A program made the translations under genes and the position numbers. From Chitinophagales bacterium (GTDB taxonomy: Bacteria; Bacteroidota; Bacteroidia; Chitinophagales; UBA2359): a DNA stretch of 64,000 bases. The DNA is taken from positions 1-64,000 of the forward strand of contig JAEUUX010000066.1 in assembly GCA_016787295.1 (NCBI GenBank), given 5' to 3'. The notes under the pieces are model-generated. The model was given only the letters and a program-made list of their open reading frames with translations, had not been told where the DNA came from and did not search any database. Positions 34,898-38,254 of the stretch are shown here, one piece after another. Numbering within the stretch: position 1 is the stretch's first letter; every line of letters starts with the position of its first letter.

Positions 34898-35905
34898 TTA
34901 TTCCATCAAGAAAGGATAATCTGCCTCGGCGTAAGTGTCGTGGTAGAGTTCTGTATCATCGGGAAAAGGCGATTCCTCAGCGAAATGTATAGAGTCTTTG
35001 ATGGTTTGCATAATACGGTCATCGAGAGTTTCTATTTCAGCTTCGGTGAGCCAAGCGGCTTCCACAATTTTGTTTTTGATGGCGTTGAGTGGGTCTTTTT
35101 GGCGGTATGCAGCTACTTCTTCTTTGGTTCTATATAAACCGGGGTCAGAAACAGAATGTCCGCGATAGCGATAGGTTTCTATCTCTAAGAAAACGGGACC
35201 TTTACCTGCTCGGCAGTGTTCGGCTGCGCGGCTGACGGCTTCGTGTACGCTCTCGGGATTCATGCCGTCGACCGACTCAGAGGGCATTTCAAAAGCAAGT
35301 CCAATTTTTGCCAAATCTGTCACGTTGGAAGTTCTTTCGACCGATGTTCCCATGGCATATTGGTTATTTTCGCAGATGAAAATAACGGGCAACTTCCACA
35401 GCATTGCCATATTAAACGTTTCGTACAACGCACCTTGTCGCGCGGCTCCGTCACCAAACATACAAATACAGAGGTTGTCTGTGCCTTTGTATTTTTCAGC
35501 AAAAGCGATACCTGCTCCCATAGGAATTTGTGCGCCAACGATGCCATGTCCACCAAAAAAATAATGTTCTTTGGAGAAAAAGTGCATTGAACCGCCTTTG
35601 CCTTTGGAACAGCCCGTGGCTTTGCCAAATAGCTCTGCCATACATTCATTGGCACTCATACCACGTGCAAGGGCTAAACCATGGTCGCGGTAGGCAGTAA
35701 TGATGGGGTCGGTGAGACGTGTGGCAGAACATATTCCCGCTGATACGGCTTCTTGACCGATATAAACATGGAAAAATCCGCGTATGCCTTTGCCAAATTG
35801 TGTGCCTGCCTGTTCCTCGAAGCGGCGTTGCAACAACATAGATTCGTACCAACTGAGGTATTGTTCGCGGCTGTAGGGCAATGTGGTTGTTTTTTTCTTT
35901 GCCAT
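34898..35905 (-). CDS. pdhA: pyruvate dehydrogenase E1 component, alpha subunit
   Basis: A 335-residue thiamine-diphosphate enzyme subunit that decarboxylates pyruvate and acetylates the E2 lipoyl groups. Diagnostic parts are GKGIRGFFHVYIGQEA, TAYRDHGLALARG, the diphosphate-binding motif GDGAARQG ending in ENNQYAMGTS, and the phosphorylation-loop-like TYRYRGHSVSDPGLYRTKEEV. Length is normal for a separate alpha subunit. The E1 beta and E2 genes are absent from the window. It starts only 7 bp after the PD-(D/E)XK-like gene, so it may be cotranscribed with the upstream cassette. Confidence 0.95.
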   Translation of the reverse strand: MAKKKTTTLPYSREQYLSWYESMLLQRRFEEQAGTQFGKGIRGFFHVYIGQEAVSAGICSATRLTDPIITAYRDHGLALARGMSANECMAELFGKATGCSKGKGGSMHFFSKEHYFFGGHGIVGAQIPMGAGIAFAEKYKGTDNLCICMFGDGAARQGALYETFNMAMLWKLPVIFICENNQYAMGTSVERTSNVTDLAKIGLAFEMPSESVDGMNPESVHEAVSRAAEHCRAGKGPVFLEIETYRYRGHSVSDPGLYRTKEEVAAYRQKDPLNAIKNKIVEAAWLTEAEIETLDDRIMQTIKDSIHFAEESPFPDDTELYHDTYAEADYPFLME

Positions 35906-35912
35906 TTGGGAT

Positions 35913-36518
35913 TTAAATGTTTTGCAAATTACAAGTGCATTTCTTATCGGGTGGATAGCGATGTCCTACCAATAATTCGGCGGTGTATTCTTCAGTAAAA
36001 AAAGCTATTTGGTCTTGTGAGCTTGATGTGGTGGCAGGAATTTTTTGTTTTTCGTTATGGTCAAATACAGAGGCTATGGCTATGATGTTTATGCCTTGGG
36101 ATAACAATTGTTCTAAGATATTGTTAGTTGCAAAGATATTAAGTGTGTTTGCTAACTGTTCATAACTTTCTTTTCGCTTATTTTTCCGTTGTTTGTGTGT
36201 ATCTTTTCGCGTTTGCCAGCCGTCTTTGGGTTCAATTATTTTTAGTTCGACAAGGATTAATTCGACATCGCTACTTAAACCAAAATCGCATTTACTGTCA
36301 TCTCCATCACTAAAAAGACAGTTATCTATCTTTAAAAAAGTTGTCATTTGGGCGCAAACATTGCAAACGTCAAACTGACTTTCCGCGCTTTGAAAAGATA
36401 CCATAACCGAAACCTTGCCTGCTGTATCTTTTACACCAAATCTTTCTTGCGTGATTGGTTCGAAGCATGAGTCTTTATCGCAAAAATGTTGCTTGAGAAT
36501 ACGAACTACCTTGTCCAT
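35913..36518 (-). CDS. predicted PD-(D/E)XK nuclease-like protein, third gene of an ATPase cassette
   Basis: A 201-residue protein of unknown family. The core SKCDFGLSSDVELILVELK gives Asp78, then a hydrophobic strand with Glu91-Leu-Lys93, which fits the D-(X)n-ExK active site of restriction-endonuclease folds. The following helix YEQLANTLNIF matches the helix with a QL pair often seen after this strand. Several cysteines (CNVC at 52-55, C67, C77, CTC near the end) could bind metal. The ATG overlaps the stop of the ATPase gene by one base (TAATG), a sign of translational coupling. The nuclease assignment is from motif reading only. Confidence 0.6.
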   Translation of the reverse strand: MDKVVRILKQHFCDKDSCFEPITQERFGVKDTAGKVSVMVSFQSAESQFDVCNVCAQMTTFLKIDNCLFSDGDDSKCDFGLSSDVELILVELKIIEPKDGWQTRKDTHKQRKNKRKESYEQLANTLNIFATNNILEQLLSQGINIIAIASVFDHNEKQKIPATTSSSQDQIAFFTEEYTAELLVGHRYPPDKKCTCNLQNI

Positions 36519-37678
36519 TAAACTTGTTGTATTTTTTGTTTTTTGAGATGCAATAATAAACGATTAAGCTCCGAAAAAGTATCGTGTATTTCTTCAGAAA
36601 CACTGTCTATCATTTTGCCAGCTATTAAGCCCGTCGTTTCGTTTATCAACGCTTCAATGTTAATTTGTTGGTCTTCGTATTCTTCAGGATTATTAATATA
36701 GTAGGCAGTTACTTTATCAGGTGTTAAAAAGTGCGAACTACCAAGAATATCAGCTACTTCCTCGCGGCTTTCGGGATGCTTTTCAACAATACTTCCTGCC
36801 ATTAATAAATTATTGATAGCAGTAATAAGGTAAGGACTGTGTGTAGTAATCAACATATTGTGGTTTTGTGACAATACATTACTGACAACCCATTGCACAA
36901 GTTGCTCTTGCGCAGCAGGAAACAAACTAATTTCGGGTTCCTCGAAAGCGTAACTGCGTTGCGTACTTTTTTGTTTATGTGCTTCAAATATCACAAGAGT
37001 TGGGACACTAAACTGCATACCGCTTGCACTCAAAGCCAGCGGTAATTTGGTACTCGAATCGTTGCGTAATAACAAATAGTCTTCTTCTTCTTCGGAGCTA
37101 TAAGTAACACCCAAAAAGTCAACTTCAAGTTTCCTTACTTTTTTTCGGGCATCATTATAGGCAGCAGAAAAAGACAAAATAGTGGAAGGTAATGTAACTT
37201 CTTTCATGGCATTGGTCAATACAATATCCTTTAAGAAGGTCACTAAACTTCTTTCTACTGGAATATATGTGGTCTCGTAAGCAGGTAAAATAGACGAAAT
37301 AGCCTTGTATAGGTCGAATTCTTGGGCATTAATGAATTTGGAAAAAATCCTCTTGATGTCATCAGAAAAATCTACGCTAACTTTTTGTTGTTGATAATTA
37401 AATACAAAATCTCTATTTTTGTTGTAACTATACTGAATTTCGGTATTATGGTTAAAATAAGTGCGAATGCCATATTTTTCTGTATAGACTAAAAAAGTTT
37501 CGGTGCTATCGTCTTGTTGAAAAAGGTCATTCCAAAAGGATTCGTTCCTAAAAATACTGATAACTTTGGCAAGTGTACTTTTACCTGTGCCTTGTTTACC
37601 AATAAAAATAGTGAGTTGGGAGAGTTGAATATCAATATCAATAATAGCTCCCAAATTTTTGATGATTAATTTTTCCAT
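36518..37678 (-). CDS. AAA/ABC-type ATPase (OLD-like, AAA_15/AAA_21 class)
   Basis: A 386-residue ATPase. Walker A is GKQGTGKST at residues 27-35, right after an SMC-like start (LIIKNLGAIIDIDIQLSQLTIF). A signature-like ALSASGMQ, Walker B YAFEEPEISLFP and the switch TTHSPYLI follow. The pattern matches the ATPase class used in many two-gene anti-phage modules (for example OLD/Gabija, Septu, PARIS), but the protein has no TOPRIM domain of its own: the C-terminal 90 residues are helical and end in a Lys/Gln-rich tail. It starts 6 bp after the upstream 127-residue protein and is coupled to the nuclease-like gene. Confidence 0.85.
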   Translation of the reverse strand: MEKLIIKNLGAIIDIDIQLSQLTIFIGKQGTGKSTLAKVISIFRNESFWNDLFQQDDSTETFLVYTEKYGIRTYFNHNTEIQYSYNKNRDFVFNYQQQKVSVDFSDDIKRIFSKFINAQEFDLYKAISSILPAYETTYIPVERSLVTFLKDIVLTNAMKEVTLPSTILSFSAAYNDARKKVRKLEVDFLGVTYSSEEEEDYLLLRNDSSTKLPLALSASGMQFSVPTLVIFEAHKQKSTQRSYAFEEPEISLFPAAQEQLVQWVVSNVLSQNHNMLITTHSPYLITAINNLLMAGSIVEKHPESREEVADILGSSHFLTPDKVTAYYINNPEEYEDQQINIEALINETTGLIAGKMIDSVSEEIHDTFSELNRLLLHLKKQKIQQV

Positions 37679-37684
37679 GGAATT

Positions 37685-38068
37685 TTAGATTGTTATTTGA
37701 AAAAGTTCTAAACGTCTACTATCGTAATAGAAAACTAAGAAATCCCCATCATCGTCTATCAAACCAAGAGCAATATTTAATGGTTCATGAAAATAGGGTG
37801 TTCCTGCTCCACTTTCTGTGTCATAAATAGGTTCTTTCAATACTTCGACCACTACTGCGGGTTCTTTTTCGGCAGGTCGGGCTTTGTTTTTCATGCCTTG
37901 TTTCCACACCACAATGTCACCCGGTTTCAGGTCTTGTTGGACACTAAATTTTTTATACGCATTAGTTAGGTTTGCCGTATGTTCAGGCACATTTTCAATA
38001 ACCCTATTGCGAAATCGGTCTTTCAGCATTTGTGCAATTTCTTGCTCCAATCTTTCATTCTTTGCCAT
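37685..38068 (-). CDS. conserved-looking hypothetical protein, first gene of the ATPase cassette
   Basis: A 127-residue soluble protein. The N-terminal half is helical and charged (ERLEQEIAQMLKDRFRNRV, HTANLTNAYKKF). The second half is beta-rich: LKPGDIVVWKQGMKNKARP, AVVVEVLKEP, PLNIALGLIDDDGDFLVFYY and SRRLELFQ. The LKPGDIVVWK part resembles an SH3-like barrel strand. Function unknown. It is the promoter-proximal gene of a tight three-gene unit and may be a sensor, adaptor or immunity-like part. Confidence 0.75.
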   Translation of the reverse strand: MAKNERLEQEIAQMLKDRFRNRVIENVPEHTANLTNAYKKFSVQQDLKPGDIVVWKQGMKNKARPAEKEPAVVVEVLKEPIYDTESGAGTPYFHEPLNIALGLIDDDGDFLVFYYDSRRLELFQITI

Positions 38069-38087: not shown

Positions 38088-38118
38088 CAAAGGTAGCGCT
38101 TTTTTTGCGCATAGTAAA
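38088..38118 (-). promoter_or_regulatory. promoter for the three-gene ATPase cassette
   Basis: On the minus strand, TTTA, 19 bp, TACCTTTG; the -7 box lies 19 bp before the start at 38068. Confidence 0.55.
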
Positions 38119-38198
38119 CACCTACATAGCGCTTTTTTTATTCTTTGTGCAATGTTTTTGGTAATGAACAGTTTTTTGCACTTTTTGAGACAAAAAAC

Positions 38199-38235
38199 AT
38201 ACGACAAATTTGGGCAAAAACCAAATTTGTCGTAT
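38199..38235 (-). terminator. rho-independent terminator after the alpha/beta hydrolase gene
   Basis: A perfect 15-bp stem ATACGACAAATTTGG/CCAAATTTGTCGTAT with a 7-nt loop; reading on the minus strand, it is followed by GTTTTTTG. Confidence 0.9.
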
Positions 38236-38254
38236 ATCATAACTATGATTAGCC

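What the first reader, a model, noticed from the sequence alone, without database searches (positions are those of the whole stretch)
35913..38068. Three-gene ATPase / nuclease-like cassette: candidate undescribed defence system
Three minus-strand genes are packed with a 6-bp gap and a one-base TAATG overlap: a 127-residue protein of unknown fold, an OLD/AAA_15-type ATPase with Walker A GKQGTGKST and Walker B FEEPE, and a 201-residue protein with a D78...E91-x-K93 core like PD-(D/E)XK nucleases. An ATPase plus a separate effector is the architecture of Septu, Gabija and PARIS, but there is no TOPRIM, HNH or helicase gene here, and the first gene has no counterpart I know in those systems.
Basis: partly seen in the sequence, partly recalled or inferred. 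Interest (0 to 1): 0.78.

Follow-up and report, generated by a model that had tools for sequence, protein, structure and literature searches.

The report
Phage-defence gene pair plus new partner
A small three-gene cassette in a Bacteroidota genome pairs an ATP-driven sensor with a nuclease, a kind of bacterial self-sacrifice defence against viruses already described in cholera bacteria, and adds a small protein of an unnamed family that recurs beside the same pair in a giant sulfur bacterium.

Summary
In detail: three minus-strand genes, C (127 aa), A (386 aa) and B (201 aa), with a 6-bp gap and a TAATG overlap. A is an OLD-type ABC ATPase. B carries a PD-(D/E)xK core: D65, D78, E91 and K93, with Q121 nearly invariant. 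The A-B pair is not undescribed. It is best matched by PADLOC's candidate PDC-M29, and it has the architecture and key residues of WonAB, an experimentally shown abortive-infection system of Vibrio cholerae (PMC12137116). All 42 B homologues in my collected loci lie directly downstream of an A homologue.

The first gene is the novel part. It belongs to a family without any Pfam, NCBIfam or PADLOC model. AlphaFold2 predicts two helices plus an SH3-like barrel. The exact C-A-B triad, again with a 6-bp gap, occurs in a Thiomargarita (Gammaproteobacteria) genome, and the two ATPases form a clade of their own (100/99). No other A-B pair found has C. Elsewhere C precedes an unrelated AAA+ ATPase with a WYL regulator, or lies in phages and plasmids.

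Best reading: a WonAB-like, translation-stopping suicide defence with a third, probably sensing or gating, subunit. That makes it a new variant of a known kind. Defence function itself is inferred, not shown.

The parts
37685..38068 (-). Gene C, 127 aa: two N-terminal helices plus SH3-like small beta-barrel; member of an unnamed family (invariant W55 K56 G58 N61 E95 R119)
   Evidence: ORF; family alignment A8; AlphaFold2 model pLDDT 90.1, pTM 0.71; SH3/KOW-type PDB matches, weak; no Pfam/NCBIfam/PADLOC family
36518..37678 (-). Gene A, 386 aa: OLD-family ABC ATPase; K33, R143, E247 and H280 correspond to WonA K34, R182, E300 and H333
   Evidence: Pfam AAA_15 4.9e-21; PADLOC PDC-M29A 7.5e-29; motif positions; clade with the Thiomargarita ATPase 100/99
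35913..36518 (-). Gene B, 201 aa: PD-(D/E)xK-type nuclease, D65/D78/E91-x-K93/Q121; K93 corresponds to WonB K71
   Evidence: PADLOC PDC-M29B 3e-9; alignment A7; AlphaFold2 model pLDDT 83, pTM 0.83, restriction-enzyme-like order of elements; PDB matches mostly PD-(D/E)xK nucleases but weak
38088..38095 (-). Possible Bacteroidota -7 promoter box TACCTTTG, 19 bp upstream of the start of C; weak evidence because the motif is common
   Evidence: 107 matches in 64 kb against 79.6 expected
38185..38250 (-). Strong hairpin followed by T-rich DNA, probably the terminator of the upstream hydrolase gene, separating it from the cassette
   Evidence: -22.5 kcal/mol, z -7.4

Best explanation
The cassette is a WonAB-like (PADLOC PDC-M29-like) abortive-infection module with an added third gene. 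Inferred mechanism: A forms an ATP-bound ABC dimer that carries B and keeps it in check. When a phage-linked signal appears, A switches and B cuts host nucleic acid, most likely tRNA or rRNA as proposed for WonAB, so translation and phage production stop. C, a small helix-plus-SH3-barrel protein made first from the operon, most likely binds the trigger (nucleic acid or a phage protein) or gates A. Shown here: gene order, conserved catalytic residues, predicted folds, conservation of the A-B pair, and recurrence of the C-A-B triad in a second phylum. Inferred: defence function, target of B, and every statement about what C does.
For: PADLOC PDC-M29A and PDC-M29B are the best hits for A and B. 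All 42 B homologues sit directly behind an A homologue, 23 of them with a 4-bp overlap. The residues whose mutation abolished WonAB defence (WonA K34, R182, E300, H333; WonB K71; PMC12137116) have counterparts in A (K33, R143, E247, H280) and B (K93). E. coli prophage relatives have the WonB-type E69-x-K71 numbering. The triad recurs in Thiomargarita with the same order and the same 6-bp gap (C 55%, A 1.1e-71, B 2.6e-14), on a contig carrying secB, a rhodanese gene, envC-like and ctpA-like genes (named from the sequences). The two triad ATPases form a 100/99 clade. C homologues stand directly before another ATPase class in 16 other loci. The cassette is absent next to pdhA in the related genomes examined.
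Against: No phage experiment exists for this subfamily. Identity to WonAB-like E. coli relatives is low (about 20% for B). The triad is known from only two genomes, so C could be a passenger. The window locus lies between housekeeping genes, not in a defence island. Fold matches of both models are weak, with no PDB match at E below 0.001.
Confidence: 0.68

Rival explanations
1. The A-B pair alone is the defence system, and C is a passenger or an unrelated regulator that happens to lie upstream.
For: About 40 or more A-B pairs lack C; C occurs in many unrelated contexts.
Against: The same order and 6-bp spacing in two phyla, with the ATPases forming their own clade, is hard to get by chance. 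In the two triads C is the best conserved of the three proteins (55% against 39% and 32%).
Confidence: 0.25
2. C is an antitoxin-like or autoregulatory protein that restrains B or represses the operon; the set works like a three-gene toxin-antitoxin module.
For: C is the first gene; the family lies beside WYL-type regulators in about 22 loci; WonB is toxic in excess of WonA and is degraded by Lon (PMC12137116).
Against: WonB toxicity needs WonA, which argues against simple sequestration in that system; C has no recognisable DNA-binding HTH.
Confidence: 0.2
3. The set has a housekeeping or DNA-repair role rather than defence.
For: OLD-family ATPases with cell-cycle roles exist in archaea (PMC12796447, abstract listed); the neighbours here are housekeeping genes.
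Against: Patchy presence (29 of 396 genomes of the phylum), absence from the same site in relatives, occurrence in viral contigs and E. coli prophage DNA, and close architecture to WonAB.
Confidence: 0.07

Closest known systems
WonAB (Vibrio cholerae WASA-1 prophage; PMC12137116), an 'OLD-ABC ATPase + novel REase' operon
   Same: OLD-type ABC ATPase followed by a small PD-(D/E)xK nuclease; counterparts of all five residues tested by mutation are present; adjacent or overlapping genes.
   Different: WonAB has two genes. This set has an extra SH3-barrel gene C, a shorter segment between Walker A and the YIPxER arginine in the ATPase (110 residues against 148 from the residue numbers given for WonA) and a longer nuclease (201 aa against a 16.1 kDa WonB).
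PDC-M29 (PADLOC candidate system; no paper held names it)
   Same: Best PADLOC hit for both A and B, same gene order.
   Different: Only moderate scores (A 99 bits and B 35 bits, against 619 and 210-226 bits for core members); no third component among the PADLOC models that matches C.
PD-T4-4
   Same: ATPase plus PD-(D/E)xK nuclease; A matches PD-T4-4_A at 1.7e-17.
   Different: Weaker match for A, and no match of B to PD-T4-4 models.
PARIS (AriA/AriB)
   Same: OLD-ABC ATPase sensor with separate RNA-cutting effector (mechanistic model).
   Different: The effector there is TOPRIM (AriB); here it is PD-(D/E)xK.
Septu / Gabija
   Same: OLD-type or related ATPase coupled to a nuclease.
   Different: Septu uses HNH; Gabija fuses TOPRIM to the ATPase and adds a helicase. 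None of these is present here.

Membership tests
WonAB / OLD-ABC ATPase + novel REase | OLD-type ABC ATPase with Walker A Lys, conserved Arg, Walker B Glu and H-loop His | tested here: met
   K33, R143, E247, H280
WonAB / OLD-ABC ATPase + novel REase | Separate downstream nuclease with PD-(D/E)xK core | tested here: met
   D65, D78, E91-x-K93, Q121; model with restriction-enzyme-like order of elements; PDB matches weak but mostly PD-(D/E)xK nucleases
WonAB / OLD-ABC ATPase + novel REase | Two-gene operon, both genes needed | tested here: inconclusive
   The pair is conserved, but here a third gene precedes it; necessity not testable
WonAB / OLD-ABC ATPase + novel REase | Direct sequence similarity to WonA and WonB themselves | not tested
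   WonAB sequences not held; a published wonA primer site was not found in viral contigs nor any of four primer sites in the loci
WonAB / OLD-ABC ATPase + novel REase | Abortive infection by translation arrest | not testable with these tools
   needs experiments
PDC-M29 (PADLOC) | Adjacent genes hitting PDC-M29A and PDC-M29B models | tested here: met
   Best hits for both, 7.5e-29 and 3e-9
PDC-M29 (PADLOC) | Scores and coverage above PADLOC's own cut-offs | not tested
   cut-offs are not shown by the tool
PARIS | TOPRIM effector AriB | tested here: not met
   B matches no AriB or TOPRIM model
Septu | HNH effector PtuB | tested here: not met
   no HNH model hit for B or C
Gabija | TOPRIM domain on the ATPase plus UvrD-like helicase | tested here: not met
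   A is 386 aa with AAA_15 and AAA_21 as the only Pfam hits above cut-off; no helicase in the cassette

The most novel reading that the evidence does not exclude
A three-component subtype of the WonAB-like systems in which a previously unnamed SH3-barrel protein is the trigger-recognising or gating subunit. The same protein family serves as interchangeable front-end for two unrelated ATPase classes (OLD-type ABC here, tandem AAA+ with a WYL regulator in purple sulfur bacteria) and has phage-encoded relatives that could be the mimicked or competing ligand.
Probability: 0.3. Interest if true: 0.75.

Novelty: new variant of a known kind. Interest (0 to 1): 0.52.

Why it matters
WonAB-like ATPase-nuclease pairs are common, but what they sense is not known. 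A subtype with a separate small subunit would give a handle on sensing, and the C family, present beside two different ATPases and in phages, would be a portable recognition module without a name in the reference libraries searched.

Tried and rejected
PARIS, Septu and Gabija membership was rejected because their effector domains are absent. A chance origin of the gene order was rejected on conservation. The single hit of C in another Bacteroidota genome (L009, 8.8e-4) was set aside: it lies inside an unrelated 281-aa protein and the family profile does not report it. A single-protein search of genome contigs with A found nothing, and one of viral contigs with C found nothing; family alignments were needed. 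Searching plasmids with B and looking for WonAB itself through a published primer found nothing. A defence-island context was looked for and not found: the neighbours are housekeeping genes. A class-wide sample of the Thiomargarita side (229 genomes) gave no further triad, and C is absent from a sample of 297 genomes of the phylum other than the window's own.

Full report
OBSERVATION. The three ORFs are exactly as reported: C 37685-38068, A 36518-37678, B 35913-36518, all minus strand, with a 6-bp gap and a one-base TAATG overlap. The window lies on contig C128 of a 5.4 Mb genome that I take to be of the phylum Bacteroidota from its CHU_C type IX secretion domains. A strong hairpin with a T-run lies between the upstream hydrolase gene and C (z -7.4). 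A TAnnTTTG box lies 19 bp before the start of C, but that motif is common in the window. So the cassette can be a transcription unit of its own. Its 3' end is only 7 bp from pdhA.

GENE A. Pfam AAA_15 at 4.9e-21 and AAA_21 at 1.2e-8. Best PADLOC hit PDC-M29A at 7.5e-29, then AriA and PD-T4-4_A. Walker A lysine K33, the YIPxER arginine R143, Walker B E247 and H-loop H280 are present. A is an OLD-type ABC ATPase without TOPRIM.

GENE B. No Pfam hit; best PADLOC hit PDC-M29B at 3e-9. In 27 relatives E91 and K93 are invariant, and C18, N53, D65, D78 and Q121 nearly so. AlphaFold2 (12-row alignment) gives pLDDT 83 and pTM 0.83. D78 lies at the edge of one strand, E91 and K93 on the next, and Q121 on the following helix. 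PDB matches are weak (none below 0.001) but are mostly PD-(D/E)xK enzymes: Hef/XPF nuclease domain, Hjc resolvase, Nt.BspD6I, cap-snatching endonucleases. The nuclease assignment therefore rests on the conserved motif, the order of elements and the PDC-M29/WonAB resemblance together.

THE A-B PAIR. A family search in 396 genomes of the phylum found B-like genes in 29. Together with viral, plasmid and own-genome loci, all 42 B homologues collected lie directly downstream of an A homologue, 23 of them with a 4-bp overlap. Two weak or broken B-like hits (L079, L080) had no intact A and are not counted among the 42. More pairs, also without C, were seen in other genomes of the same family and order. 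Pairs also occur in viral contigs and, at 99-100% identity to one of those, in 10 of 5426 complete E. coli genomes. The window's own genome holds a second, divergent pair on contig C254 (L053).

WHAT THE PAIR IS. PADLOC lists it as candidate PDC-M29. The literature held describes WonAB of the V. cholerae WASA-1 prophage: an OLD-ABC ATPase plus a PD-(D/E)xK nuclease, abortive infection of ICP1, activity in E. coli against Vequintavirinae, and translation arrest without genomic DNA loss, with tRNA or rRNA suggested as target (PMC12137116). WonA K34, R182, E300 and H333 and WonB K71 are essential there; A and B have the counterparts K33, R143, E247, H280 and K93. E. coli prophage relatives have the WonB numbering E69-x-K71. 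I could not compare with the WonAB sequences themselves.

GENE C. No Pfam, NCBIfam or PADLOC family; two PHROGs of unknown function match (1.5e-7 and 5.3e-6). Plasmid homologues gave an alignment that found 60 loci in GTDB species genomes, mostly purple sulfur bacteria, Competibacteraceae, Thiotrichaceae, Methylocystaceae and Halomonas. Invariant residues are W55, K56, G58, N61, E95 and R119. AlphaFold2 gives two helices and a small barrel (pLDDT 90, pTM 0.71). Its PDB matches are SH3-like folds (thiocyanate hydrolase and nitrile hydratase subunits, KOW proteins L24/L26 and NusG, NdhS, YorP), none below 0.01; the fold names of these entries are from my own knowledge. Three phage proteins of unknown function match at 1e-6 to 6e-6 (Bcep22, Pylas, an uncultured phage), and tblastn with a viral homologue finds further Erwinia and Burkholderia phages.

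THE TRIAD. Of the loci with C homologues, one, L089 of Thiomargarita sp., has the same C-A-B order with the same 6-bp gap: C 55% identical, A 1.1e-71, B 2.6e-14 and cut by the contig end. Its contig carries a secB gene, a rhodanese gene, a phosphoglycerate mutase gene, and envC-like and ctpA-like genes (named by me from the sequences), an arrangement I know from Gammaproteobacteria, so Bacteroidota contamination is unlikely. In the tree of 42 ATPases the two triad ATPases form a supported clade (100/99); both have long branches, as several others do. No other A-B pair carries C, and C is absent from 296 other genomes of the phylum. The window's triad was therefore probably acquired by horizontal transfer.

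LOCATION. In most related genomes pdhA is followed by the same TPR gene, and in most of those inspected a gene that looks like recF is divergent on its other side. None has the cassette there. The cassette is an accessory insertion at an otherwise conserved site.

OTHER CONTEXTS OF C. In 16 loci C is directly upstream of a tandem-AAA+ ATPase of about 750 aa (IetA/TRIP13-like), mostly with a divergent WYL regulator; in 8 it is followed by a WYL protein; in 13 Halomonas-type loci it is followed by a 122-aa gene; in 2 it follows a HEPN-like gene. C thus recurs next to two unrelated ATPase classes, which is the main reason to think of it as a recognition or gating subunit. That remains inference.

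MECHANISM. Most likely: ATP-bound A dimer holds B; a phage-linked signal, perhaps read by C, releases or activates B; B cuts host RNA; translation stops. The A-B steps rest on analogy with WonAB. The role of C is a hypothesis.

VERDICT. Its ATPase-nuclease core is a known kind; its three-gene form with the C protein is a new variant, resting on two genomes.

Noticed in passing
L098 4540-7469; also L082, L096, L102, L104, L106, L108, L109, L116, L119, L122-L127: A conserved module in purple sulfur bacteria and relatives: divergent WYL regulator, C-family gene, and directly downstream a tandem-AAA+ ATPase of about 750 aa (IetA/TRIP13-like); in Thiodictyon followed by a TmtA-like 1659-aa gene. 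Possibly an unnamed defence module.
   Followed up: partly
L053 (G000 contig C254) 9924-11803: The same genome carries a second, divergent OLD-ABC ATPase plus PD-(D/E)xK-like pair without C.
   Followed up: partly
L154-L162; phage records JN585957.1, OQ053201.1, OM283127.1, MH426726.1: C-family proteins are encoded by phages, in some viral contigs near genes that look like replication genes, all annotated as hypothetical.
   Followed up: partly
L046 5001-6748 (E. coli E24377A and 9 other complete genomes): A WonAB-like pair at 99-100% identity in 10 of 5426 complete E. coli genomes, annotated as AAA family ATPase and hypothetical protein.
   Followed up: partly
L095 423-1694; L100 2857-4047: C-family gene directly behind a HEPN-like gene in two Thiotrichaceae genomes.
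   Followed up: no
window 35905-35913: The cassette ends 7 bp before the start codon of pdhA, so pdhA transcription may now depend on the cassette or on a promoter inside gene B.
   Followed up: no
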